Of a stretch of DNA of 15,717 bases, positions 95-10,957 are shown piece by piece; within the stretch, counting starts at the first letter, position 1, and each line of letters begins with the position of its first letter. Below the pieces are notes generated by a model, which was not told the DNA's origin, did no database searches, and worked only from the letters and a program-made list of their open reading frames with translations. A program made the position numbers and the translations under genes. This DNA comes from CBDUXP01 sp965371225 [NCBI: uncultured bacterium] (GTDB lineage Bacteria > Abyssobacteria > SURF-5 > CBDUXP01), in the NCBI GenBank assembly GCA_965371225.1, contig CBDUXP010000082.1:1-15717 (forward strand), given 5' to 3'.

Positions 95-116
95 GGGCCG
101 GTCTAATGACCGGCCC
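95..116. terminator. GC-rich hairpin between convergent genes, covering the ComEC stop codon
   Basis: A perfect 9-bp inverted repeat, GGGCCGGTC (95-103) and GACCGGCCC (108-116), encloses the 4-base loop TAAT. The minus-strand stop codon TAG of the ComEC gene (105-103) lies at the junction of loop and stem. A hairpin this strong at a gene end suggests a transcription end or 3'-end protection structure for either strand. Neither side has a clear run of U residues, so it is not a textbook intrinsic terminator. Confidence 0.5.
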
Positions 117-2598
117 CTACCCCAGTGGATCGCAACGTGCGCGTTTGCACTGTCGCCAAGCGGTGGTTCTCTGCCTTCTCCGGCCACGCTTGCGGTTCAC
201 CGATGGTCGGCCGCACGGTGATCGCGCCGGTGGGTTCGATGCGAATGCGCACGCCGCCGTGCCGATCCGTGCGTCGCGTGGCCTGGGCGCCGTGCAGGCC
301 GGGGACAGGCCAGCGGGGGGGCCAGACCGCGCCGAGGGACGCCCACGCCAGAGTGGGCCGTAATGCCGCGAGCGCCGGGCCGGTGCCCGGCCGCGGGAAC
401 CCGTGGTGTGGCGCCTTCAGCACGACACGCTCGGGCCAGGGCGCTCCCGCCGCGATGGCGTCGGGCAGGGTGCCGCTCGCGTCCGCCGCGAGCAGGACCG
501 CCACCCCCGCGTAATCGATGCGAATGACAATGCTGTTGTCATTCTCGTCGTTGCTGGTTCCTGTCCGCGGCACCGCCGTCGGATTGAGCACGCGCACGTC
601 CACGTGGTCGCCCACGCGGAGCGTATGCCCGCGTTGCACCTGGACGACGGGTCGCCCGCTGCGCACCGCACGCGCGCCGAACGTCCGCGTGGTCCACGTG
701 TCGTGCGCGCTGCCGTTTGTCCAGATTTCGCCCACCGGCAGCGCGTCGAGCACGCTGATGAGACCGCCCAGGTGGTCGTTGTGCCCGTGCGTAGCCACCA
801 GCCAGTCCACGCGTCGTATTCCGTGGCGCAAGAGGTACGGCAGCACGATGGCGGTACCCGTGTCGAACGTGCGCGACCGCCGGCCCCCGTCCACGAGCAT
901 CACCTCTCCCGTGGGAAAGCGAAGCACCGTGGCATCCGCTTGCCCTACATCGAGCGCCGTGATCTCCAGCGCACGCGGTGCGGGGCGCGCCGGCGCGAAG
1001 TTGAGCAGCACCAGGCTGGCGGCCACCGTGCCCGCGCGCCAGAGGGGACGGTACCGCAGCAGGAACCACGCGGAGAGCAGCGCCACTGCGTACGCCGCCA
1101 GCACGGGCAGGGGTGGCACCGTGGCGACGCCCGTCACCGTGGCGGCCAGCCGCGCCATGAGTTTGATCCACCCCAGCAGCATCTCCGTTGCGCCGGCCGC
1201 CAGCCACGCGGGTACCGCGCCGACCACGGGATGAATGCTCAGGCCCGCCGCCGCGAGAGCGCCCGTCAGCAGCACGACGCCAAGCAACGGGGTCGCCAGG
1301 GTATTTGCCGGAACGCTGACGACCGGCAACTGTTGGAAATGCCACAGCAGGATGGGCGCGATGGCCAGGTGCACGATCGCAGGGACGAGGAACGCGTGGG
1401 CGACGGCGAGCACCGGCCACCGCCACGGCGGCTCGACGCGCGCCGCGACCCAGTCGTACAGGTGGCGGGACAGCGGGCGGTATACCACGAGGAGCGCCGC
1501 CACCGCTGCGAACGAGAGCTGGCACCCGGCCGCGTGGAATGCCAGTGGGTCAAACAGCAGCACCGCGGCGGCGACCACGGCGATGATGCTCAGGCCGTCC
1601 GGGGGGCGCCGCCATCGCAACATTATGAGCGCGAGGCTGAACATGAGCGCCGCGCGCACCACCGGAACCGCGCCGCCGGTGAGCGTGGCGTAGGCCGCAA
1701 TGAATCCGATGGCGACGACGGTGGTCCATCGGCGCCGCAGGCCGGCGGCGCGGGCGGCCAACAACACGCCGGCGGCAACGATCCCCACGTGCAAGCCGCT
1801 GATGCTGAGCAGATGGTATGTGCCCGTGAGCTGGCCTGCCTCGCGCAGCTCCGCACTCACCCACCGGCGGTCGCCACCCAAGACGGCGAGCAGGAAGCCG
1901 CGTCCGTCCTCCGACGCGGGAATACGCTGGACGACCGCGCTCAGGTGCCGCCGCACCGCGCCCACCGCGGCCTGTCGGAGCGGCAGGTGCCCGCGTCCCA
2001 GCACGGTGACCGCGTCGGACCCGTGCGCCGAGAGTTGCGAGTGATACCCGCGGCGCCGGAGATACCGGCCGTAATCGAAGAGGCCGGGATTCACGAAACC
2101 GCGCACGGCCCGCAAGCGGCCCGCGACCTGCACCCGTGTGCCCGCCTCCAGCGATCCATTCGGCCGATACCACGACCACCAGACCCGCCCTGACAGAGGC
2201 GCCCACGCGTCGTCGACCCGGACGGCCTCGACGCGGAGACCGGCGCGGACCCGCGTACCATCCGTAGACCAGCGAATCTGCGGCTCAACCACCCCGCGGA
2301 CGGTCACGGGCCGCGAGCCGGGTGTGGCGATCAGCAGCGCGAGCGGATCGGGCACGCGCGTGCGCAACTCGGCCCCGCGCGCCAGCACGCTGCCGGCGCA
2401 GAACATGGCCAGTGCGGCGACGGGCCAGCGCCACCGCGGCCACCACCCCGTGCAAATGAGCGCACCGATCGCGGCCAACAGGCCGGTGATCCACGCGCTG
2501 TCAGGGCCGGCGTGTGCGTTGACGAACGTGCCCGCCACCAGCCACACGACACACCAACACCATGGGCGTCGCCGCACGGCGGGCTCCCTCAGCGCCAC
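103..2598 (-). CDS. comEC: ComEC/Rec2 family DNA uptake channel with C-terminal metallo-beta-lactamase domain
   Basis: In this family ComEC forms the inner-membrane channel that admits single-stranded DNA during natural transformation. The 831 residues show the full layout. There are N-terminal membrane helices (about 12-75) and a soluble N-terminal domain to about 200. The competence domain (about 230-500) carries the signature HLLSISGLHVG at 262-272 and many membrane helices. A metallo-beta-lactamase domain starts near 543, with THGHNDH at 603-609 (metal ligands His604, His606, Asp608, His609), DENDNS at 684-689 and KAPHHG at 728-733. The listed start is GTG at 2598. A second GTG at 2577 has a better-placed GAGGGAG six bases upstream and gives MRRRPWCWC before the first helix, so it may be the true start. 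It is the last gene of the long minus-strand operon, 21 bases after the receiver gene. Family certain; role in transformation inferred. Confidence 0.95.
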   Translation of the reverse strand: MALREPAVRRRPWCWCVVWLVAGTFVNAHAGPDSAWITGLLAAIGALICTGWWPRWRWPVAALAMFCAGSVLARGAELRTRVPDPLALLIATPGSRPVTVRGVVEPQIRWSTDGTRVRAGLRVEAVRVDDAWAPLSGRVWWSWYRPNGSLEAGTRVQVAGRLRAVRGFVNPGLFDYGRYLRRRGYHSQLSAHGSDAVTVLGRGHLPLRQAAVGAVRRHLSAVVQRIPASEDGRGFLLAVLGGDRRWVSAELREAGQLTGTYHLLSISGLHVGIVAAGVLLAARAAGLRRRWTTVVAIGFIAAYATLTGGAVPVVRAALMFSLALIMLRWRRPPDGLSIIAVVAAAVLLFDPLAFHAAGCQLSFAAVAALLVVYRPLSRHLYDWVAARVEPPWRWPVLAVAHAFLVPAIVHLAIAPILLWHFQQLPVVSVPANTLATPLLGVVLLTGALAAAGLSIHPVVGAVPAWLAAGATEMLLGWIKLMARLAATVTGVATVPPLPVLAAYAVALLSAWFLLRYRPLWRAGTVAASLVLLNFAPARPAPRALEITALDVGQADATVLRFPTGEVMLVDGGRRSRTFDTGTAIVLPYLLRHGIRRVDWLVATHGHNDHLGGLISVLDALPVGEIWTNGSAHDTWTTRTFGARAVRSGRPVVQVQRGHTLRVGDHVDVRVLNPTAVPRTGTSNDENDNSIVIRIDYAGVAVLLAADASGTLPDAIAAGAPWPERVVLKAPHHGFPRPGTGPALAALRPTLAWASLGAVWPPRWPVPGLHGAQATRRTDRHGGVRIRIEPTGAITVRPTIGEPQAWPEKAENHRLATVQTRTLRSTGVGAGH

Positions 2599-2619
2599 CT
2601 CCGTGGCGTGGTTCGCGGC

Positions 2620-3021
2620 TCAGTCTTCTTCGACTGGCCCGTCGTCTTCGAGCGGCACGTATTGATTGACCGATTCGCGTAGCTCCTCGATGCCGATCGG
2701 TTTCACCAGGAAATCCGACGCGCCCACATCCATCGCTTGCATGCGGGCCTTCTCCGTCCCCACCGCCGTGCAGAAGATGATGGGGACGCGGTGGGTGCGG
2801 CGGTGTTCGCGCAGGGCCGCACAAATTGCGAAGCCGTCCATGTCAGGCAGCATCAAGTCCAGGGTGATCAGGCTGAAGCGGTGTTCGTCCACACGGCGGA
2901 GCGCGACCTTCCCCGTGATCGCGGTTACGACCTCGAACCCGAGACGCTCTAACGCGACGGTGAGGAACTCGCGGAAGTTCTCCTGATCCTCGACAACCAA
3001 CGCTCTCCGTGTTCTTGACAT
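2620..3021 (-). CDS. Stand-alone CheY-like response regulator receiver
   Basis: A single receiver domain of 133 residues with no output domain. It shows the acidic pair Glu11-Asp12 (VVEDQ), the phospho-acceptor Asp55 within LITLDLMLPDMDGF, the switch Thr85 in IIFCTA, and the invariant Lys107 in FLVKP. The usual Asp-Asp acid pair is Glu-Asp here, which many active receivers tolerate. The tail after residue 121 is strongly acidic. Such proteins act by phosphorylation-dependent binding to partners rather than to DNA. The gene lies 27 bases after the 158-aa membrane protein gene and 21 bases before comEC. No kinase is adjacent; the nearest is the FHA-GAF kinase about 9 kb away, and pairing between them is only a guess. 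Start ATG at 3021; a weak GGAG lies 12 bases upstream. Confidence 0.93.
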   Translation of the reverse strand: MSRTRRALVVEDQENFREFLTVALERLGFEVVTAITGKVALRRVDEHRFSLITLDLMLPDMDGFAICAALREHRRTHRVPIIFCTAVGTEKARMQAMDVGASDFLVKPIGIEELRESVNQYVPLEDDGPVEED

Positions 3022-3048
3022 ACGGCTCTGATGCTCCAGACGGGCGAG

Positions 3049-3525
3049 TTACGGGATCGGCGCGGTGATTCCGGTCGGCGGGGGGGCAATTCCGGAATTG
3101 GCCGGGGCGAGCCGGACGCGGGGAATCGTGACTGTGCCCTGGGCGGTGCTGACGGCTGCCCCGAGCGCGCCGCCGCCCAGGTGCACTCCCGCGCCCAGAC
3201 TCTGCACGCCCAGCGAGTCACCGGTCCGGATCGGGGTCGCACGGGCCAGGTCCCAGCCCATCTCGGGCGGTTCCCCGGCGCGCGAGGGCGGAGGCGCATC
3301 GGCCGCGTCGCCCGACGGGCGCACGGGTTTGTCGCTCAAGATCACGGGTTTCATGAGTTGCCGTTCCAACGCGCGGGACGCCGATTCAGCGGCCGGTTCT
3401 GGCGTGCTCACTTGAAGCCGCCACACATTCCACAGTGCGAGAACGACCAGCCCCGCCCCCGCCACGAGCACGAAACTCAATACGACCCCTTCCGACCGCG
3501 TTATACCGGCGGTGGTCTCCAGCAT
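3049..3525 (-). CDS. Hypothetical single-pass membrane protein with Pro/Ala/Gly-rich tail
   Basis: I do not recognise a family. From the ATG at 3525 the protein is 158 residues. A hydrophobic segment lies at about 13-35 (EGVVLSFVLVAGAGLVVLAL). A charged stretch with an ERQLMKPVILSDKP segment (54-67) follows, then a low-complexity region rich in Pro, Ala and Gly to the end. The segment at 98-135 resembles short beta strands with repeated small residues (GVQSLGAGVHLGGGALGAAV). The frame stays open upstream to 3792, but that part is antisense-like filler overlapping two better-supported small genes, so I chose 3525. The gene sits 41 bases after the 53-aa gene and 27 bases before the receiver gene. 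The N-terminus is probably cytoplasmic or a signal anchor, with the tail outside. Function unknown. Confidence 0.7.
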   Translation of the reverse strand: MLETTAGITRSEGVVLSFVLVAGAGLVVLALWNVWRLQVSTPEPAAESASRALERQLMKPVILSDKPVRPSGDAADAPPPSRAGEPPEMGWDLARATPIRTGDSLGVQSLGAGVHLGGGALGAAVSTAQGTVTIPRVRLAPANSGIAPPPTGITAPIP

Positions 3526-3566
3526 CCAGGATACCTGATGCGCACCGGTGTCACAAGCAGAATCGG

Positions 3567-3728
3567 CTATTCGGCGGCCGCTTCCAGCCATCGAGCGGCC
3601 CGATGGAGCCCCTCGGGCCAGACCAACCCGCAGACCAGCGTGTAGAGGCTGAAGACGGGAAGGATGAACGAGACGAGGTCCAGCACCGCCAACCCCATGA
3701 GCCCCCACCACGCCCGCGACTTGCCCAT
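3567..3728 (-). CDS. Small hydrophobic membrane protein, 53 aa
   Basis: The ATG at 3728 is preceded by AGGAGGA with about six bases of spacing, the best Shine-Dalgarno sequence in the window, which strongly supports this short gene. The product begins MGKSRAWWGLMGLAVLDLVS. It is almost continuously hydrophobic from about residue 7 to 37, enough for one long or two short membrane helices. It ends in an amphipathic stretch, LHRAARWLEAAAE. No family is recognised. It begins 11 bases after the 58-aa gene, whose stop region contributes to the ribosome binding site, so the two are probably translationally coupled. Position after a transporter permease suggests an accessory subunit or a general small membrane protein; this is inference. 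Confidence 0.72.
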   Translation of the reverse strand: MGKSRAWWGLMGLAVLDLVSFILPVFSLYTLVCGLVWPEGLHRAARWLEAAAE

Positions 3729-3730
3729 GA

Positions 3731-3740
3731 CGTTCCTCCT
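3731..3740 (-). promoter_or_regulatory. Strong Shine-Dalgarno overlapping the stop of the preceding small gene
   Basis: On the minus strand the sequence is TGAGGAGGAACGTC followed by ATG. The TGA stop of the 58-aa gene abuts AGGAGGA, and the start codon of the 53-aa gene follows at 3728. This decides the start of the 53-aa protein and points to translational coupling. Confidence 0.75.
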
Positions 3741-3916
3741 CACCGGGTCTTTTCGACCAGCCGCCCCGCCGCGTAACCCAAGCGCAACCCATGGGTCCGC
3801 CCGAGCCAGAAACCCAATGCTGCGCCCCCGCCGAAGATGAGCACCGTGTACAGCACGCCGAACCAGAACCGCCGGCTCCTGCGGCGGCGGAGCCCGGCCG
3901 TGTCCCGCGCGGGCAT
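3740..3916 (-). CDS. Small basic membrane protein, 58 aa
   Basis: A short gene lying between the DppC-type permease and the 53-aa gene. The ATG at 3916 has GGAAGG about eight bases upstream. The product has a very basic N-terminus (LRRRRSRRFW, residues 9-18), then a membrane helix at about 17-39 (VLYTVLIFGGGAALGFWLG), then a short basic tail ending GRLVEKTR. The positive-inside rule puts the N-terminus in the cytoplasm. Glycines are spaced GGGAALG and GFWLG within the helix, which could support helix packing. It starts 18 bases after the permease stop and ends 11 bases before the next start, consistent with co-transcription. No family recognised. Overlapping frames of the permease region are open here but lack comparable start signals. 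Confidence 0.65.
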   Translation of the reverse strand: MPARDTAGLRRRRSRRFWFGVLYTVLIFGGGAALGFWLGRTHGLRLGYAAGRLVEKTR

Positions 3917-3934
3917 CAGGCGTGCCTTCCCGGC

Positions 3935-4771
3935 TTACGTACCACGGGCACTCTCCCGCAGCGCGAAGCTCGGGTCCCATGCGTCCCGCAGCCGGTCCCC
4001 CAGGATGTTGCACGCCAAGATCGTCAGCGCCACGGCGACTCCGGGCGCTACCACGATCCAGGGGGCAGTGGCGATGAAGTGGCGCCCGAGGCTGATCATG
4101 CCGCCCCAGGACGGGGAGGGAGGCGCGACGCCGAAGCCGAGGAAGCTCAATGATGCCTCGGCCAAGATGAAGCCCCCCAGCTTGACCGTGGCAGCGACCA
4201 CCACGAGCGACTGGCACTGGGGCAACAAGTGGCGCAGGGTTAGGCGCCACACGGGCAGTCCCGCGGCGCGCGCCGCCTGATACGCCGGCTGCTCGCGCAA
4301 CACGAGCACCTGAGCGCGCAACAGGCGTGCGAACGTGGTCCACCCCACCAGCGCGAGCGCCAGCAGGATCGACACCGCTCCCGGGGGCATGACCACTGCG
4401 ATGCCTAACGCGAGCAGCAAGCTGGGGAACGCCATGGTCACGTCGGTCACCGCGACACAGCCCATGTCGATCCACCCGCCGCTGACGCCGGCCGTCAGGC
4501 CCACCACACTGCCAATGACCACCGCGAGCAGCGTGGCGCAGAAGCCGATGGCCAGGGACAGGCGGGCGCCCGCAATCATGCGCGCCAGCACGTCGCGCCC
4601 GTGTTGATCCGTGCCGAGCCAGTGGGCGCGCGAGGGTGCGTGGAGCGACGCGTCGAAGTCCACCGCCAGCGGATCGTAGCCGGTCCACGCCGGCCCGGCG
4701 AGCGCGAGCCCGGCCATCACCAGCAATATGCCGGCGGCCGCGTAGGCCGTCAGGCGGCCCGCGCCGCTCAT
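3935..4771 (-). CDS. DppC/OppC-type ABC transporter permease
   Basis: The second membrane subunit of a peptide/nickel-type ABC importer (binding-protein-dependent inner-membrane component), 278 residues. The N-terminal helix (about 9-26) is followed by HWLGTDQHGRDVL at 50-62, the hallmark of DppC-like proteins. Further helices lie at about 72-95, 108-145, 188-210 and 235-257. The EAA loop contacting the ATPase is YQAARAAGLPVWRLTLRHLL (164-183). Later motifs are EASLSFLGFGV (205-215) and NILGDRLRDAWDP (255-267). Length and motifs are normal for the family. The ATG at 4771 overlaps the TGA stop of the upstream fusion gene as ATGA, a sign of translational coupling and of a DppB-DppC heterodimer. 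Substrate is not predictable from the permease; neighbours suggest peptides. No ATPase gene is found nearby. Confidence 0.95.
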   Translation of the reverse strand: MSGAGRLTAYAAAGILLVMAGLALAGPAWTGYDPLAVDFDASLHAPSRAHWLGTDQHGRDVLARMIAGARLSLAIGFCATLLAVVIGSVVGLTAGVSGGWIDMGCVAVTDVTMAFPSLLLALGIAVVMPPGAVSILLALALVGWTTFARLLRAQVLVLREQPAYQAARAAGLPVWRLTLRHLLPQCQSLVVVAATVKLGGFILAEASLSFLGFGVAPPSPSWGGMISLGRHFIATAPWIVVAPGVAVALTILACNILGDRLRDAWDPSFALRESARGT

Positions 4772-7374
4772 GTTACGGCCCCCCGCTGCAGCCGGACGCG
4801 AGGATCCAGCACCGCGTACGACACGTCGACGATGAGGTTGACCACGACGAAGATCACTGCGCCGAACAGGACGGTGCCGAGCACGACGGGAAAATCATGT
4901 TGCAAGACGCCGGTCATCGCGTAGCGGCCGATGCCGTCCCAGCCGAAGATCGTTTCCGTCAGCACGGCGCCGTTGAGGTAGCTACCCAGGTCCACCCCGA
5001 AAAGGGTGACCAGCGGGAGCAGCGCGTTCCGATACGCGTGGACGAGCACCACGCGCCACTCGTGGACGCCTTTCGCCCGCACCGCGGTGAGGAACGGTTG
5101 CGAAAACACCTCGAGCAGGGCCGTTCGCGTCACGCGGGCGACGAACGCGGCCGACTGCGTGCCGAGGGTGATGGCCGGCAGCACCAGATACGCCAGCTCC
5201 CCGCGGCCCATCCCGGCGACCGGTAACGCGCCTAGGCGGTAGGCGAACACATACACCAGCACGAGCCCAAGCCAGAATGTGGGCACGGACAGCCCCACCA
5301 GCGCGCCTGAAGAGCACAGCACGTCGCCCCACCGCCCGCGCAGCACCGCCGCCCCCAGGCCCAGCGTGCTCCCCACCAGGACGGACACCACCATGGCCGC
5401 GACGGCGAGCCGCAGCGTGTTGGGCAGCTTCTCCATGAGCGCCTCGGCCACCGGAATCCCCGTGTAGTACGACCGGCCCAGTTCGCCGCGCGCCAGCAGG
5501 CCCACGTAGCTGACGTACTGCGCCGGGAGGGGCGCGTCCAGCTGCAGCGCCTCGCGGAGTTGCGCGATGGTCGCCTCGTCCGCCTGCTGGCCCACCAGGG
5601 CGTAGACGGGATCCCCGGGCATGCTGCGCAGCAGCGCGAACGTGATGAGGGTGACCCCGAGCAGGGTCGGGACCGCGATCAACAACCGGCGCCCGGCGTA
5701 CTGGCGGGCGGGCGACGCGATGAGGACGACGGTGATGCCGGCCAGCGCGAGCAGCACGAGCGGGCCGATCCGGGAACGGCTGGGCGCTGCCACGCCCCCG
5801 CGCTGCACGAGCTGCGACTCGATGGCCAGCATCGGATCGCCGTTCGGAATGGCGGACGGCGTGAAATTAGTGATCCACGGTTGTCTGACGTACAGGCGAT
5901 CTTGGTGCCACAGGAAGACCCACGGGGCATCCTCGACCACGGTGCCGGCGATGGCCGCGATGAGTTGCCGCTGCGCCCCGGCGTCCACGGTTCCCTGCAG
6001 CGCGCGAATCTGCGCATCCACCGACGCGCTCGCATACTGCGCGCGATTGCCCCCTGCACCCCAGTTCGCGGAGTGGAAGACGGGCGCGAGAAAATTCTCC
6101 GCGTGCGGATAGTCGGCGTACCACGAAAGGAAAAACAAGTCCGCCTCCCCCTCCACGATGGCGGCCTTCAACGCGCTCCACTCGCGCTGCACCAGCTCCA
6201 CCTCCAGGCCTGCTTCCGACAGATAGGCCTGTAACGCCTCCGCGATGCTGATGGCCTCCTGCGTCGCCCGCACGTACAGGCGCAGGGGCCGGCTCGGGAG
6301 CGTGATGCGTCCCAGCAGTTGTCGGGCGCGGGCCGGATCGTACTCCCAGGCCGCGTCGCTCGCGCCCCCGCCCCGCAGGCTCGGCGGAATCGGCCCGCGC
6401 GCCGGTGTGGCCAATCCGCGCAGCAGGACGCGCACGATCTGCTCGTTGTTGATCGCCAGGTTCAGGGCCTGCCGGTAGGTGCGGTCCCGGCCCGGGCCGC
6501 GCGCGCAGTTGATGCCCAGGTAGTACGTGTTCAGGCCGGTCACGCGGTGGAGGAGCGGCGCCCAACGCGCGTCCGCTTGAAACCGCGCGACTTCCGTAGC
6601 CGGGACGTCGAGGATGTCCAGCTCCCCGCGTTCGAAGAGCGCCACGCGCGAGAACGGTTCCGGAATGATGTGGTAGATCACTTCGGAGTTGCGCGGTGGC
6701 CCGGCGTGGTAGCGGCCGAACGCGTCCAGCTCCAGCACGCGCCCCCGCTGCCACTGGGCCAGGCGATAGGGGCCCGCGCCGGCGGGTTCTGTCGCGAAGG
6801 CGCGGGGCCCCTTCGCAGCGACGACGGGATCGACGATGGCCGCGTTCGGCATCGCCAGCAGGCTGGGAAAGATGCCGAAGGGTTCGGTGAGCGTGATCCG
6901 GATCGTGTGTGCATCCTCGGCGGTGAGGCCGCGGACGTGCGGCGCGTGCCCCTGCCGAAACGCTGCGACGCCGTCGACCCGATCCAGGAGCCAACTGCGC
7001 CGCGAGCCGGAGGCCGGCGTGGCCAGGCGCTCCAACGACGCCACCACGCTCGTGGCGGTCAGGGGCCGGCCGCTGTGAAAAGTCAGGCCGTCGCGCAGGT
7101 GGAAGCGGTAGACGCGCCCGTTCTCGGTTACGGTCCAGGAGGCGGCCAAGTCGGGAACCACGTCGCCGTCCGGTGTGAACCGCACGAGGCCGGCGTACAC
7201 CTTCGCCGCCACCTCGGCGCCGGAGACGTCTACGATCTGGACGGGATCGAGGGTCGTGGGATCTTCGGCCAACGCCAAGCGCACGGTGGCCGACGCCCTG
7301 CGTGGCGCGCCGAGGCACAGGAGGAGCAGGAAGACCGCCGCGCGGCAGGAATTAATGGCCGGTCGACTGCGCAC
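4768..7374 (-). CDS. Fused oligopeptide-binding protein and DppB-type permease
   Basis: One continuous frame of 868 residues combines two parts normally made separately. Residues 1-29 form a signal sequence (basic start, VFLLLLCLG core, cleavage possible after ASA). Residues about 30-525 are an extracytoplasmic solute-binding protein family 5 domain, with LAEDPTTLDPVQI at the N-terminus, LRDGLTFHSGRPLTA, RQALNLAIN and FLSWYADYPHAENFL. An extra membrane helix (about 536-553) leads to a basic cytoplasmic turn (SPARQYAGRR). A complete DppB permease follows to the end, with SMPGDPV, LPNTLRL, the EAA loop TAVRAKGVHEWRVVLVHAYR (763-782) and ETIFGWDGIGR (807-817). The start chosen is GTG at 7374; the frame is open upstream to 7476, but that part lies inside the hydrolase gene and lacks a signal peptide. 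It overlaps the hydrolase gene by 23 bases and the DppC gene by four. No frameshift is visible. Confidence 0.92.
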   Translation of the reverse strand: MRSRPAINSCRAAVFLLLLCLGAPRRASATVRLALAEDPTTLDPVQIVDVSGAEVAAKVYAGLVRFTPDGDVVPDLAASWTVTENGRVYRFHLRDGLTFHSGRPLTATSVVASLERLATPASGSRRSWLLDRVDGVAAFRQGHAPHVRGLTAEDAHTIRITLTEPFGIFPSLLAMPNAAIVDPVVAAKGPRAFATEPAGAGPYRLAQWQRGRVLELDAFGRYHAGPPRNSEVIYHIIPEPFSRVALFERGELDILDVPATEVARFQADARWAPLLHRVTGLNTYYLGINCARGPGRDRTYRQALNLAINNEQIVRVLLRGLATPARGPIPPSLRGGGASDAAWEYDPARARQLLGRITLPSRPLRLYVRATQEAISIAEALQAYLSEAGLEVELVQREWSALKAAIVEGEADLFFLSWYADYPHAENFLAPVFHSANWGAGGNRAQYASASVDAQIRALQGTVDAGAQRQLIAAIAGTVVEDAPWVFLWHQDRLYVRQPWITNFTPSAIPNGDPMLAIESQLVQRGGVAAPSRSRIGPLVLLALAGITVVLIASPARQYAGRRLLIAVPTLLGVTLITFALLRSMPGDPVYALVGQQADEATIAQLREALQLDAPLPAQYVSYVGLLARGELGRSYYTGIPVAEALMEKLPNTLRLAVAAMVVSVLVGSTLGLGAAVLRGRWGDVLCSSGALVGLSVPTFWLGLVLVYVFAYRLGALPVAGMGRGELAYLVLPAITLGTQSAAFVARVTRTALLEVFSQPFLTAVRAKGVHEWRVVLVHAYRNALLPLVTLFGVDLGSYLNGAVLTETIFGWDGIGRYAMTGVLQHDFPVVLGTVLFGAVIFVVVNLIVDVSYAVLDPRVRLQRGAVT

Positions 7375-8065
7375 AGGCGACGACGAACGCTTCGAACAGG
7401 GCGGTACGATGCCGGCCCGACATCTTTTCCGGATGCCACTGCACCCCGACGCAGAACGGGTCGCCCTCGCGTTCAATGGCTTCGATGATGCCGTCGTTGG
7501 AGAGCGCCGCGATCTGCATCCCGTGGCCCACGTTCTTCACGCCTTGGTGGTGCATGCTGTTGACGCCCTCGGGCTGTTTCCCGAGGATGGTCGCCAATCG
7601 CGTGCCGCGTTCAATCGCGATGTCGTGGCGCCCGTCGGTTTCGGGGAGTTTATGCTCCCGGGCCCCGGGGGCGTCGGTGCGAATGTGGTACAGAAGCGTG
7701 CCCCCATGGTGTAGGGCCATGAGCTGCATGCCATAACAGATCCCCAGGACCGGCAGCCCGCGGGTCAACGCTTGGGTCATCAGGTTGTGATCCGTATCGA
7801 TGCGCGCCTGCGACACGGGGTTGAATTGGATGGGGTACGCCGGGCTCCCCGGCGGCGGCAGAATGTCGTCCCCGCCCGGGATCAGGATGCCGTCCAGGCG
7901 ATCCATGAGGCGCGCGGCGTCGGCTTGCAGTGGGATGTACACCGGAATCGCGCCGGTCGAGGCGATGGAATTGGCATACGCCGCGTCGATGTATTCGTAA
8001 TCGCGCCCGGTGCGCCACTCGCCGCGGTCATCCAGCCCGAGCGAAATGCCAATGATCGGCACCAT
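7352..8065 (-). CDS. Class I glutamine amidotransferase-like gamma-glutamyl hydrolase (peptidase C26, PuuD type)
   Basis: The 237 residues match the C26 family that hydrolyses gamma-glutamyl bonds, as in gamma-glutamyl-GABA hydrolase PuuD. The nucleophile is Cys110 in LGICYGMQ, and the His211/Glu213 pair lies in VQWHPEK. Family-specific segments are IPGGDDI (62-68) and VNSMHHQGV (168-176). The N-terminus PIIGISLGLDD also fits. There is no signal peptide, so it acts in the cytoplasm. Synthase partner domains typical of GuaA or CarA are absent, so it works as a free hydrolase. It starts 21 bases after the deacylase stop and overlaps the transporter gene by 23 bases, implying shared function. 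The exact substrate (gamma-Glu-GABA, gamma-D-Glu peptides, or other) cannot be read from sequence. A TATACT box eight bases upstream may provide an internal promoter. Confidence 0.92.
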   Translation of the reverse strand: MVPIIGISLGLDDRGEWRTGRDYEYIDAAYANSIASTGAIPVYIPLQADAARLMDRLDGILIPGGDDILPPPGSPAYPIQFNPVSQARIDTDHNLMTQALTRGLPVLGICYGMQLMALHHGGTLLYHIRTDAPGAREHKLPETDGRHDIAIERGTRLATILGKQPEGVNSMHHQGVKNVGHGMQIAALSNDGIIEAIEREGDPFCVGVQWHPEKMSGRHRTALFEAFVVACAQSTGH

Positions 8066-8073
8066 AAGCCAAT

Positions 8074-8079
8074 AGTATA
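8074..8079 (-). promoter_or_regulatory. Possible internal -10 box upstream of the C26 hydrolase
   Basis: On the minus strand TATACT ends eight bases before the hydrolase ATG at 8065, and no Shine-Dalgarno sequence is present. A start of transcription at or next to the ATG would give a leaderless mRNA. No convincing -35 is seen. It lies in the 21-base gap after the deacylase gene. Confidence 0.35.
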
Positions 8080-8086
8080 CCAGGAG

Positions 8087-9673
8087 TTAGCCGCTGCGAC
8101 GGTGGAGGACGCGACCGGGCCGCGCAGGGGTGACGGCACCATCGCGCACCACCGGTACGCCTGCGACCCACACGTGGGCAATGCCGGCGGCGTACTGGTG
8201 CGGCTCTCCATAGGTGGCGCGGTCGTCGACGGTTACCGGATCAAACAACACGAGATCCGCCGCGAGACCCGGCGCCAGCCGGCCGCGCTGCGCGAGACCG
8301 AACCGCTGCGCGGGGAGGCCGGTCATCTTGTGGATGCCTTCCGCCAGGCTGAGGGTGCCGTCGTCCACGAATTCGCGGAGCACCCGCGCACACGTGCCGT
8401 ACGTCCGCGGGTGGGGCTTGCCACGAAACAGCGGACCGTGTGCAGCCTTGGCCGACGCGTCCGACCCGATCATCACATACGGGCGCGTCAGGATCCGGCG
8501 CAGGTTCTGCGGGTCCATGAAGAACCGGACCGAGTCGACGCGGAGTTCTTCCTCGATGAGCAGATCGAACATCGCGTTGCACGGGTCTTCGTTGCGGTCA
8601 GCCGCGATCTCGGCGAGGGTGTTGCCCTCGAGATGCTTGTTCGCGTCCCCGAAGACGCCCGCCACGACGATGCGCTCCCAGTACGCGTCGTCGGGGTGGT
8701 CGCGCAGGATCTCATCCCGCAGCCGGCGGCGCGTGGCCGGGTCGCGCAGTCTGGCCAGCTCGGCTTCGTGCCCACCCTCGAACGCCCACGCGGGCAGCAC
8801 CGCGTCCAGATCGGTGCTGGATGCGGTGTAGGGATACCGGTCGGCCCACACGTCGAGCCCGGCTGCGCGCGCCCCCTCGATTTTCCCCAGCACGGCATCC
8901 AGCTTGTGCCAGTTTTCCGGCCCGCTGCACTTCAGGTGCGACACTTGGAGCGCGCAGCCCGTAGCTTCGCTGATCGCGATGACTTCGTCGAGGGCGCGTT
9001 CCACTTCCGCGCTCTCGCTGCGCATGTGCGTGGCGTGCACGGCGCCGTGGTGTTCGGCCACCCGGCCCAGGTCCTGCAGCTCGTCGCTGTCCGCAAAACA
9101 GCCGGGCGAGTACACCAGGCCCGTGCTGAACCCGAAAGCCCCCGCGTTCAGCGCGTCGTCCAGGAGACCGCGCATGCGGTCCCGTTCCCCCGCGGTCGCA
9201 GGCCGCTGTTCGTAGCCGACGGTGGAGCCGCGAAGGTTCCCATGACCAATGAGCACGGCCAGGTTCACGGCCGTGCCGGTGGCGTGCACCCGCTCCACGT
9301 ACTCCGGATACTCGCGCCAGTCCAATTGCAGCGCGGGCTCGGCGGCCCACGAGTGCTGAATGTGCGTGCGGCACGGCTCGTGCAACGGCGCGGCGGCGTA
9401 CCCGCAGTTGCCGATGACCTCGGTGGTCACGCCCTGGCGGGTTTTGCTGTCGGCGCCCCCGTTGACGAGGATCGTGAAGTCGCTGTGCGAGTGTACGTCG
9501 ATGAAGCCCGGACAGAGCACCCGCCCCCGCGCGTCGATCACTTCGCGCGCGTCGCCGGTCACGTGCGCGCCCACCTCCGCGATGCGCCCGTCTTGGACCG
9601 CGAGCGTACCGCGCTCACCTGGCGCTCCGTTCCCGTCGTACACGGTCGCATTCGCGATCAACAGATCGAACAC
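8087..9673 (-). CDS. N-acyl-D-amino-acid deacylase (D-aminoacylase), amidohydrolase superfamily
   Basis: This enzyme type hydrolyses N-acyl-D-amino acids to a free D-amino acid and a carboxylate. The 528 residues carry the zinc-site residues of the family in order: His61 and His63 in DVHSHSDF, Cys90 in VIGNCGY (the bridging cysteine of D-aminoacylase), His216 in HATHMRSE, His246 with Lys248 in QVSHLKCSG, and Asp405 in MIGSDAS. The C-terminal strand domain (GLAADLVLFDPVTV, 469-482) is typical. The GTG at 9673 begins VFDLLIANATVYDG, the expected N-terminus; longer frames reaching 10126 run into the divergent gene and are not credible. No signal peptide, so cytoplasmic. It is the first gene of the long minus operon. 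Some family members act on dipeptides or dihydropyrimidine-like substrates, so the exact substrate is open. Confidence 0.94.
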   Translation of the reverse strand: MFDLLIANATVYDGNGAPGERGTLAVQDGRIAEVGAHVTGDAREVIDARGRVLCPGFIDVHSHSDFTILVNGGADSKTRQGVTTEVIGNCGYAAAPLHEPCRTHIQHSWAAEPALQLDWREYPEYVERVHATGTAVNLAVLIGHGNLRGSTVGYEQRPATAGERDRMRGLLDDALNAGAFGFSTGLVYSPGCFADSDELQDLGRVAEHHGAVHATHMRSESAEVERALDEVIAISEATGCALQVSHLKCSGPENWHKLDAVLGKIEGARAAGLDVWADRYPYTASSTDLDAVLPAWAFEGGHEAELARLRDPATRRRLRDEILRDHPDDAYWERIVVAGVFGDANKHLEGNTLAEIAADRNEDPCNAMFDLLIEEELRVDSVRFFMDPQNLRRILTRPYVMIGSDASAKAAHGPLFRGKPHPRTYGTCARVLREFVDDGTLSLAEGIHKMTGLPAQRFGLAQRGRLAPGLAADLVLFDPVTVDDRATYGEPHQYAAGIAHVWVAGVPVVRDGAVTPARPGRVLHRRSG

Positions 9674-9679
9674 CAACGC

Positions 9680-9685
9680 AGTGTA
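9680..9685 (-). promoter_or_regulatory. -10-like box giving a leaderless deacylase mRNA
   Basis: The minus strand reads TACACT, then GCGTTG, then GTG start. Six bases between a -10 hexamer and the start codon would place transcription initiation at the start codon itself. There is no Shine-Dalgarno sequence. The position where a -35 would fall (about 9703-9708) overlaps the -10-like box of the divergent gene. Confidence 0.45.
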
Positions 9686-9700
9686 GCACGCGCTGCGTGG

Positions 9701-9706
9701 TATCAT
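9701..9706 (+). promoter_or_regulatory. -10-like box giving a leaderless mRNA for the TPR metallopeptidase
   Basis: The plus strand reads TATCAT, then GCCGCG, then ATG at 9713, the same six-base spacing seen on the opposite strand for the deacylase. No Shine-Dalgarno sequence precedes the ATG. The expected -35 region (about 9678-9683) overlaps the deacylase -10-like box. Confidence 0.45.
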
Positions 9707-9712
9707 GCCGCG

Positions 9713-10957
9713 ATGCGCCGATGCGTACTCGCGTTGTGCACTGTTGTGCTGCTCGTATGTGCGGGACGCGTTCGACCTGCCGGTGCGCAGCCCGCCGCCG
9801 CCGCCAAAGCCGCGCAACTCAACGAAGAAGGGCTCGCCCTCTACGAGGCGGGGGCCCATGAGGAGGCGATCGACCGGTTCACGCGCGCCTATGAATTGCA
9901 GCCGGAGGAACCGGTCCTCATCAAGAACCTGGCGAACGCGCATGCGGCGTACGGGGCCGCGCTCGACGAGGCGCGGCGGGATGCCGCGGCCATCCAGCAT
10001 TTTCGGTATGCGTTGGAGTTGGCGCCCGGTAATGAGTCGGCGCACGCGGGGCTGACGAACCTGTACTACCGTCGCGGGAACTACACCAAGGCGCAGGCGG
10101 AGTTGGGCCCCTACGTGCGCGAGCATCCGGAGGACACCGACGCGCGAACGATGCTGGGGGAATTGTATTACCGCACGGGGGACCTGGCGGCCGCCGTGCG
10201 CGAGTGGGAAGGCGTGTTGCGACGGACGCCGCGCGACACGGACCTCCGGGAGCGTTTACACAAGGCGAAGCGCGAACTTGCGGTCGAGGGTCACTTCGAA
10301 CAAGACCGCAATCAGTTCTTCACGGTCCGGTATGAAGGCGATCGCATGGAGGATGCCGGCTACCACGTCCTGCGGCTGTGTAGCGACGCGCGGCGCGACA
10401 TCGGCCGCGAGCTGCAGGTGTATCCGCAGCGGCCGCTGGAAGTGATCCTCTATACGACCGCGCAGTTCGATGCGGTTACCCAGGCGCAGTCCCACGTGGC
10501 GGGACTGTACGACGGGAAGATTCGCATCCGCGTGCCGCCCGGGCGGCTCAGCACGTCGCACCTGCGGCGCGTAGTGTTTCACGAATACGCGCACCTGGCC
10601 ATCGGTGAGCTGACGCAGGATAATTGCCCGTACTGGCTCAATGAGGGCTTGGCGCAGTGGTTCTCGGAGGACTTCACCGATGCCCACCGCCATCGCCTGC
10701 GGCGCGCGGCCCTGCCACCGACCGCCTCACTGGAGCAGGTGGACATCATCCAGACGGGCGCGGACCGGCTGCTCCTGCTCAACGCCGCATCTTTCGCGCT
10801 GGTGGACTACCTGCGTGCACGCTACTCGTCGCGGTATCTGCTGGACCTATTGCGGGCACTCGGAAACGGCGTGCCATCGCAGGAGGCCCTGCGGGCCAGC
10901 TACCGCCGCTCCTACGCGTACCTGGATAAAGCCGTCGCGGCGTACGTGGCGGAGTAG
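9713..10957 (+). CDS. Exported TPR protein with HExxH metallopeptidase domain
   Basis: The 414 residues begin with a signal peptide (MRRCVLALCTVVLLVCAGRV, cleavage likely after AGA near 25), so the protein is exported. Tetratricopeptide-like repeats occupy about 33-185, with helices such as NEEGLALYEAGAHEEAIDRF, HFRYALELAPGNESA and LYYRTGDLAAAVREWEGVL. A gluzincin-like peptidase domain follows, with the zinc motif HEYAH at 290-294 and the likely third ligand Glu311 in WLNEGLAQWF. Such TPR-peptidase proteins are thought to act on envelope proteins with the repeats binding partners; substrate unknown. The frame is open far upstream, antisense to the deacylase, but ATG 9713 is right because of the signal peptide and the -10-like box. 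It diverges from the deacylase by 39 bases and converges on the YchF-like gene with five bases between stops. Confidence 0.88.
   Translation: MRRCVLALCTVVLLVCAGRVRPAGAQPAAAAKAAQLNEEGLALYEAGAHEEAIDRFTRAYELQPEEPVLIKNLANAHAAYGAALDEARRDAAAIQHFRYALELAPGNESAHAGLTNLYYRRGNYTKAQAELGPYVREHPEDTDARTMLGELYYRTGDLAAAVREWEGVLRRTPRDTDLRERLHKAKRELAVEGHFEQDRNQFFTVRYEGDRMEDAGYHVLRLCSDARRDIGRELQVYPQRPLEVILYTTAQFDAVTQAQSHVAGLYDGKIRIRVPPGRLSTSHLRRVVFHEYAHLAIGELTQDNCPYWLNEGLAQWFSEDFTDAHRHRLRRAALPPTASLEQVDIIQTGADRLLLLNAASFALVDYLRARYSSRYLLDLLRALGNGVPSQEALRASYRRSYAYLDKAVAAYVAE

What the first reader, a model, noticed from the sequence alone, without database searches (positions are those of the whole stretch)
4768..7374. 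Binding protein and DppB permease in one chain, joined by an extra helix that restores topology
Seen: a signal peptide, a full family 5 solute-binding domain and a full DppB permease lie in one uninterrupted frame. Between them sit a hydrophobic segment (about residues 536-553) and a basic turn. Known: binding proteins lie outside the membrane, while DppB starts on the inside. Inference: the extra helix brings the chain back to the cytoplasm so that DppB can fold normally, which argues for a selected fusion rather than an assembly error. A tethered binding protein would work at a fixed one-to-one ratio with its permease. Fusions of this kind exist in other ABC importer families; I do not know how widespread this one is in peptide importers.
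Basis: partly seen in the sequence, partly recalled or inferred. Interest (0 to 1): 0.7.

Follow-up and report, generated by a model that had tools for sequence, protein, structure and literature searches.

The report
Peptide-binding protein fused to its permease
In a small group of uncultured bacteria, two normally separate parts of a peptide-uptake pump, the outside catcher and one half of the membrane channel, appear to be made as one chain with an added membrane helix that would keep each part on its correct side.

Summary
One open frame on the minus strand (7374..4768, 868 aa) carries a signal peptide, a family 5 solute-binding domain and a DppB permease, with a predicted helix at 536-553 between them. 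It is not an assembly accident: the same architecture, extra helix included, occurs in three other genomes, which are all three genomes held of one GTDB phylum (Abyssubacteria group). Of 50 separate binding proteins of the family, none has such a hydrophobic tail; 4 of 4 fused proteins do. The fused proteins form one clade in a concatenated tree (SH-aLRT 99). No fusion was seen in samples of three other phyla (44, 247 and 395 genomes). Best reading: a type I peptide importer whose single binding domain is tethered to DppB, so the two are made 1:1; its ATPases are probably shared with a second operon. Binding-domain/permease chimeras are known (GlnPQ, OpuA, EgtU), but my limited literature searches found none for the Dpp/Opp family: a new variant of a known kind. 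Function is inferred, not tested.

The parts
4768..7374 (-). Fused gene: signal peptide, family 5 solute-binding domain, linker, extra helix, DppB permease (868 aa)
7288..7374 (-). Signal peptide region, residues 1-29 (start codon unsure; by eye no classical lipobox, whereas the three relatives read as lipoproteins)
   Evidence: sequence; no signal-peptide program was run
5857..7287 (-). Solute-binding domain, residues 30-506 (SBP_bac_5)
   Evidence: model pLDDT mostly above 90
5770..5856 (-). Linker, residues 507-535 (pLDDT below 50 at 524-534)
5716..5769 (-). Extra membrane helix, residues 536-553, expected to run outside to inside
   Evidence: same place in a relative's model (533-555)
5692..5715 (-). 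Short turn, residues 554-561, expected cytoplasmic, before DppB helix 1
4771..5691 (-). DppB permease domain, residues 562-868
5584..5589 (-). Scoop-loop pair Q596-Q597, in the place of E. coli DppB E41-R42
3935..4771 (-). DppC permease partner; its ATG overlaps the stop of the fused gene (ATGA)
7352..8065 (-). PuuD-like peptidase C26, upstream neighbour; also upstream in 2 of 3 fused relatives and in 20 of 31 split-gene loci with enough flank
8087..9709 (-). D-aminoacylase-like amidohydrolase, neighbour in 15 of 31 split-gene loci with enough flank; not seen in the three fused relatives

Best explanation
A type I ABC importer of the Dpp/Opp (peptide/nickel) family in which the solute-binding protein and the DppB permease are one polypeptide. 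Shown: the fused frame, its domains, its presence in four genomes, the hydrophobic helix between the halves, and the DppC gene that follows. Inferred: the N-terminal signal sends the binding domain outside; helix 536-553 stops transfer and brings the chain back to the cytoplasm, so DppB starts on the inside as usual and pairs with DppC; the binding domain, held by a roughly 29-residue linker, docks on its own DppB/DppC pair. If DppB and DppC form a heterodimer as in E. coli, each pump carries exactly one tethered binding domain. No DppD/DppF ATPase was found in the window. In the three relatives the only oligo_HPY ATPase pair lies with a second, ordinary dpp operon, so it is probably shared. 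The substrate is probably a peptide, perhaps with gamma-glutamyl or D-amino-acid links, judged only from the PuuD and D-aminoacylase neighbours.
For: Domains. Fused relatives: L001 and L004 (2 of 80 loci), and 3 of 3 genomes of the GTDB phylum of G002 (third read). Helix: hydropathy maxima 2.16-2.45 in 4 of 4 fused proteins against a highest value of 1.12 in 50 split binding-protein tails. Models of two fused proteins place a helix there, 536-553 and 533-555, each with a break before DppB helix 1. Single origin: DppB tree SH-aLRT 94, concatenated tree 99. Synteny: DppC follows in 3 of 3 fused loci, ComEC lies within 5 kb downstream in 3 of 3 fused and 0 of 31 split loci; the window has both. 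ATPases: exactly two oligo_HPY matches in each of G001, G002, G013, on the contig of the separate dpp operon.
Against: The linker helix is modelled with middling confidence (block means about 50-70 in the window model, 53-74 in the other). Flanking charges are symmetrical, so the positive-inside rule gives no independent support. The binding-domain tree alone leaves the fused group unresolved, although an AU test does not reject it (p 0.67); the window's branch is long. On the DppB side the contrast is less complete: of 80 separate DppB rows, 55 have a start codon within 5 codons of the usual N-terminus, and 3 (L043, L046, L052) have a possible upstream start with a 16-17 residue hydrophobic run; whether that is translated is unknown. 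No reads, expression, transport or proteomic data. No whole genome for the window, so the source of its ATPases is unknown.
Confidence: 0.85

Rival explanations
1. The chain is made fused but is cut in the flexible linker (residues 507-535), releasing an ordinary free binding protein; the fusion is then only a way to make the two parts in equal amounts.
For: Part of the linker is disordered in both models and it is poorly conserved (13-41% identity).
Against: In three relatives the N-terminus reads by eye as a lipoprotein signal, so even a cut binding domain would stay anchored there. Signal peptidase acts at the outer end of helices running inside to outside, not at this one (general knowledge). 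No test of cleavage was possible.
Confidence: 0.12
2. An assembly or sequencing error joined two adjacent genes by losing a stop codon.
For: In many relatives the two genes are adjacent or overlap by 4 bases, and in some they lie in one frame with a stop between (L123, L129, L130, L131).
Against: Four genomes carry the same join. Simple loss of a stop would not create a membrane helix, yet all four have one. G+C by codon position is smooth across the junction.
Confidence: 0.01
3. A decayed or non-transport use: the fused protein lacks ATPases of its own and acts as a peptide sensor rather than a pump.
For: No ABC ATPase among the window proteins given to Pfam; in the window the scoop-loop pair is Q-Q instead of E-R.
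Against: DppC follows in all three fused relatives and in the window. DppB is the best conserved part (63-85% identity). Split-gene relatives in Nitrospirota also have their oligo_HPY ATPases away from the binding protein (6 of 6 genomes looked at). The other three fused proteins keep the E-R pair (3 of 3).
Confidence: 0.07

Closest known systems
DppABCDF / GsiABCD type peptide importers (E. coli), TCDB 3.A.1.5 (number recalled)
   Same: Same binding-domain family (SBP_bac_5) and permease families (BPD_transp_1_N + BPD_transp_1, DppC partner); best solved relative of the permease is E. coli DppB.
   Different: In E. coli, separately purified DppA and DppBCDF did not form a stable complex (PMC12136057, passages read); here the binding domain is in the same chain, joined through an extra helix.
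GlnPQ of Lactococcus lactis
   Same: Two binding domains are joined in tandem to the permease in one chain (PMC8025302, passages read); that they lie on its N-terminal side is recalled.
   Different: Different families; two binding domains per chain in a homodimer, so four sites. Here one domain, with a separate DppC gene.
OpuA of L. lactis and EgtUBC of Streptococcus pneumoniae
   Same: Binding domain and permease in one chain (PMC2861598 and PMC9732360, passages read).
   Different: Betaine and ergothioneine transporters; OpuA is a dimer of two such halves; that EgtUBC also works as a dimer is recalled.
Split orthologues in Nitrospirota, Auribacterota and deltaproteobacterial MAGs (names from record titles)
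   Same: Same gene order PuuD, binding protein, DppB, DppC in many loci; about 34-45% identity in the binding domain and 41-57% in DppB.
   Different: Two genes; no hydrophobic tail on the binding protein (0 of 50).

Membership tests
Dpp/Opp (peptide/nickel) ABC importers | Family 5 solute-binding protein | tested here: met
   PF00496 284.6 bits against cut-off 32.4
Dpp/Opp (peptide/nickel) ABC importers | DppB-type permease with BPD_transp_1_N | tested here: met
   PF19300 and PF00528 over cut-off; E. coli DppB best solved match, 1.1e-66
Dpp/Opp (peptide/nickel) ABC importers | DppC partner permease | tested here: met
   3935-4771: PF00528 over cut-off; best NCBIfam matches Opp2C, Opp4C, NikC, below their equivalog cut-offs
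Dpp/Opp (peptide/nickel) ABC importers | DppD/DppF ATPases with oligo_HPY | tested here: inconclusive
   None among the 11 window proteins given to Pfam; no genome held; in the three fused relatives exactly one pair, on another contig
Dpp/Opp (peptide/nickel) ABC importers | Scoop-loop E-R pair of DppB | tested here: not met
   Window has Q596-Q597; in the 42 aligned DppB rows E 33, R 40. Described for E. coli DppB; not a strict family mark, so membership is not withdrawn
Dpp/Opp (peptide/nickel) ABC importers | Peptide uptake | not testable with these tools
   No functional data
GlnPQ/OpuA-type binding-domain/permease chimeras | Binding domain and permease in one chain | tested here: met
GlnPQ/OpuA-type binding-domain/permease chimeras | Belongs to the amino-acid or betaine families of those systems | tested here: not met
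   Pfam matches are SBP_bac_5, BPD_transp_1_N and BPD_transp_1 only
GlnPQ/OpuA-type binding-domain/permease chimeras | Homodimeric permease with two or more binding domains per pump | tested here: inconclusive
   A distinct DppC gene follows, pointing to a heterodimer; not shown biochemically

The most novel reading that the evidence does not exclude
A heterodimeric peptide importer that carries exactly one covalently tethered binding domain per pump, tethered at both ends in some members (lipid at the N-terminus, extra helix at the C-terminus), which arose once in an Abyssubacteria-like lineage and borrows its ATPases from a second dpp operon.
Probability: 0.5. Interest if true: 0.6.

Novelty: new variant of a known kind. 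Interest (0 to 1): 0.42.

Why it matters
The well-studied tethered importers carry two or four binding domains per pump (OpuA, GlnPQ), so the effect of tethering is hard to separate from competition between domains. A heterodimeric pump with one tethered domain would be a clean natural case. In E. [quoted passage not shown] It also shows how a fusion between an outside protein and a permease that starts inside can be solved by adding one helix.

Tried and rejected
Candidate second fusions G016:C247 and G017:C51 looked like single frames in the 'open_frame_aa' column, but reading the DNA showed separate frames; that column reads across stops. Likewise L129, L130 and L131 are separate genes. Plasmids: 4809 records matched, 40 rows were listed, and I read the frames of three (H2, H37, H38): separate genes. 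For the other 37 rows I saw only annotated names, most of which list separate binding-protein and permease genes; H21 and H31 lie in records without annotation, and H22 lists permeases only.

A coupled change of scoop loop and binding pocket was considered: the residue aligned to DppA R383 is E in 37 of 51 aligned rows, so it is not special to the window; the mapping of R383 and D436 was counted by hand from the alignment. A murein-recycling operon was considered: the genes between PuuD and the binding protein in some Nitrospirota loci gave no peptidase by eye (no family search was run on them). The fold search listed 50 of 734 matches, all binding proteins.

Literature: searches (listings) and passages; none describes a family 5 binding protein fused to DppB. 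The Abyssubacteria genome paper PMC6121073 has no occurrence of 'ABC transporter', 'peptide' or 'permease' in its main text (term search only). Only open-licence PubMed Central papers were searchable. Domain-architecture counts in Pfam/InterPro could not be queried.

Rows dropped: trees used rows above bit-score limits (60 binding proteins, 89 DppB), duplicates from genome searches left out; the concatenated tree (46 rows) also leaves out L013, L020, L032, L060 and L078, where the two genes are apart or belong to another system. Counts of aligned residues rest on alignment A2: 4 fused, 47 of 50 separate binding proteins and 38 of 79 separate DppB rows; L003, whose genes are broken, was left out. 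In one search the tail start fell too early in at least three rows (L013, L026, L038), so more than the tail was scored there. Neighbour counts use only loci with enough flank. In the genome surveys only the best 2-3 candidates per genome were scored.
Full report
Observation. The frame on the minus strand runs from GTG 7374 (open up to TTG 7476) to TGA 4770-4768 and encodes 868 residues, 93.4 kDa. Pfam finds SBP_bac_5 at 72-439, BPD_transp_1_N at 561-657 and BPD_transp_1 at 668-861. Among the 25 of 27 NCBIfam matches shown, the best are DppB/NikB/GsiC-type permeases for the second half and GsiB/DppA/NikA for the first, all below their curated cut-offs, so no exact substrate is named. Hydropathy peaks at 536-554 (2.45). 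An AlphaFold model built from 89 rows of the window and fetched loci has mean pLDDT 88.6 and helices at 536-553 and 556-584. The stretch 524-534 is disordered and the extra helix is modelled with middling confidence.

Is it real? One scan of genome contigs kept the best 80 of 138 confirmed loci. Reading frames in all 80 showed the two halves in one frame in L001 and L004, and in separate frames in the other loci that hold both. L001 is titled Candidatus Poribacteria, L004 Candidatus Abyssobacteria SURF_17. The GTDB phylum of L004's genome has three genomes in the tool's collection, one of them L001's, and all three have the fused protein (3 of 3); the third was read directly, and all three carry the same three Pfam domains as the window. 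Identity to the window is 44-46% in the binding domain and 63% in DppB. The same join in four genomes excludes a one-off assembly error.

The helix. All four fused proteins hold a 19-residue stretch of mean hydropathy 2.16-2.45 between the end of the binding domain and DppB's first helix. Of 50 separate binding proteins of the same family, none has such a tail (highest 1.12). On the other side, of 80 separate DppB rows 55 have a start codon within 5 codons of the usual N-terminus; 15 have a possible start 12 or more codons upstream, and in 3 of these (L043, L046, L052) the upstream stretch is a 16-17 residue run of hydropathy 1.62-1.99. In L130 the frame just after the binding protein's stop also reads a short hydrophobic run before DppB's ATG. 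Whether any of these is translated is unknown. Between fused proteins the helix shares only 16-44% of residues while DppB shares 63-85%. A second model, of the L004 protein with 61 rows, puts a helix at 533-555 and a break before DppB helix 1. Kept hydrophobicity with drifting letters fits a spacer that must cross the membrane. The charges on its two sides are equal (3 Arg each in the window), so its direction rests on the signal peptide before it and on DppB's known start inside (general knowledge).

Origin. In the DppB tree the four fused proteins are one group (SH-aLRT 94). In the binding-domain tree they fall in one supported set of eight with four Auribacterota-group rows but are not resolved; holding them together is not rejected (AU p 0.67). 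The concatenated tree groups them at 99. The window's branch is long in all three. Synteny agrees: DppC follows in 3 of 3 fused loci and ComEC lies within 5 kb downstream in 3 of 3, against 0 of 31 split loci with enough sequence; the window has DppC and ComEC in the same order. A response regulator between them was matched in L001 and L125 but not in L004, and PuuD upstream in L004 and L125 but not in L001. The window's YchF-like GTPase scores best against the three Abyssubacteria-group genomes of 26 searched, 22 with a match (41-43% identity; one Nitrospirota genome has 44% at a lower score). So the window probably comes from a relative of that group; this is inference, as no genome is held.

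How widespread. With the same model, a strict E-value limit and, in the larger samples, only the best few candidates scored per genome, fused matches were absent from 44 genomes of the phylum of G003 (Auribacterota by title; 2 rang, both separate genes with a stop between), from 247 genomes each of the phyla of G004 and G015 (deltaproteobacterial or proteobacterial by title; the 19 genomes listed besides each centre are the same, so this seems one sample), and from 395 genomes of the phylum of G007 (Nitrospirota by title; 1 rang, also separate genes). The positive control is. Other phyla could not be reached this way, so wider occurrence is open.

The rest of the pump. DppC's ATG overlaps the stop of the fused gene (ATGA). 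No ABC ATPase is among the 11 window proteins given to Pfam. In each of the three fused relatives there are exactly two oligo_HPY matches and exactly two DppB N-domains, one fused and one ordinary; both ATPases lie on the contig of the ordinary dpp operon. Two family 5 binding proteins were counted in G001 and in G002. The simplest reading is that one ATPase pair serves both permeases. Of six Nitrospirota genomes with the split genes, four have exactly two oligo_HPY matches, G007 three (one a fragment) and G008 four; none lies beside the binding protein. So the arrangement probably came before the fusion.

Working model. In E. coli one DppA caps one DppB/DppC pair, DppBCDF alone has essentially no ATPase activity, and separately purified DppA and DppBCDF do not form a stable complex (PMC12136057, passages). 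In the fused pump the binding domain would be held next to its permease by about 29 linker residues, at a fixed one-to-one ratio. In three relatives the N-terminus reads by eye as a lipoprotein signal, which would anchor the domain at both ends; the window's does not. The window differs in one more point: the DppB scoop-loop pair E41-R42 is Q596-Q597, whereas in 42 aligned rows R is kept in 40 and E in 33; the binding-domain aspartate aligned to DppA D436 is kept in 51 of 51.

Substrate. A PuuD-like peptidase is upstream in 20 of 31 split loci with at least 4 kb of upstream sequence, and a D-aminoacylase within 7 kb in 15 of 31. This hints at peptides with gamma-glutamyl or D-amino-acid parts; it is a weak inference.

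Novelty. Chains joining a binding domain and a permease are established for GlnPQ, OpuA and EgtU (passages). I found no report for the Dpp/Opp family in the searches named, which cover open-licence papers only. I rate it a new variant of a known kind.

Noticed in passing
window 5584-5589: DppB scoop-loop E-R pair replaced by Q-Q in the window, unlike the other three fused proteins, although its binding-domain aspartate is kept.
   Followed up: partly
G001:C60, G002:C130, G013:C104 (L127, L126, L128): A second, ordinary dpp operon holds the only oligo_HPY ATPase pair of these genomes, so one pair may serve two permeases.
   Followed up: partly
L001 7530-10646: The fused protein of L001 carries an in-frame insertion of a repeated RHSEPPP-type unit, and a similar motif lies upstream of its start: perhaps a repeat element inside a transporter gene.
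   Followed up: no
L043 and L052 upstream of DppB; L130 between binding protein and DppB: Short hydrophobic runs in DppB's frame before its usual start: chance, or possible half-way stages to the fused form.
   Followed up: partly
L123 3078-5723: Binding protein and DppB of another dpp system share a frame and are parted by a single stop codon.
   Followed up: partly
L003 7938-10533: The split system is broken into several frames, by decay or sequencing error.
   Followed up: no
window 103-4771: DppC and ComEC are neighbours in the window and all three fused relatives (response regulator between them matched in the window, L001 and L125), although the functions look unrelated.
   Followed up: partly
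window 9713-10957: A TPR protein with a peptidase MA-like domain on the plus strand; its frame stays open far back across the D-aminoacylase gene on the other strand (7772-10957).
   Followed up: partly
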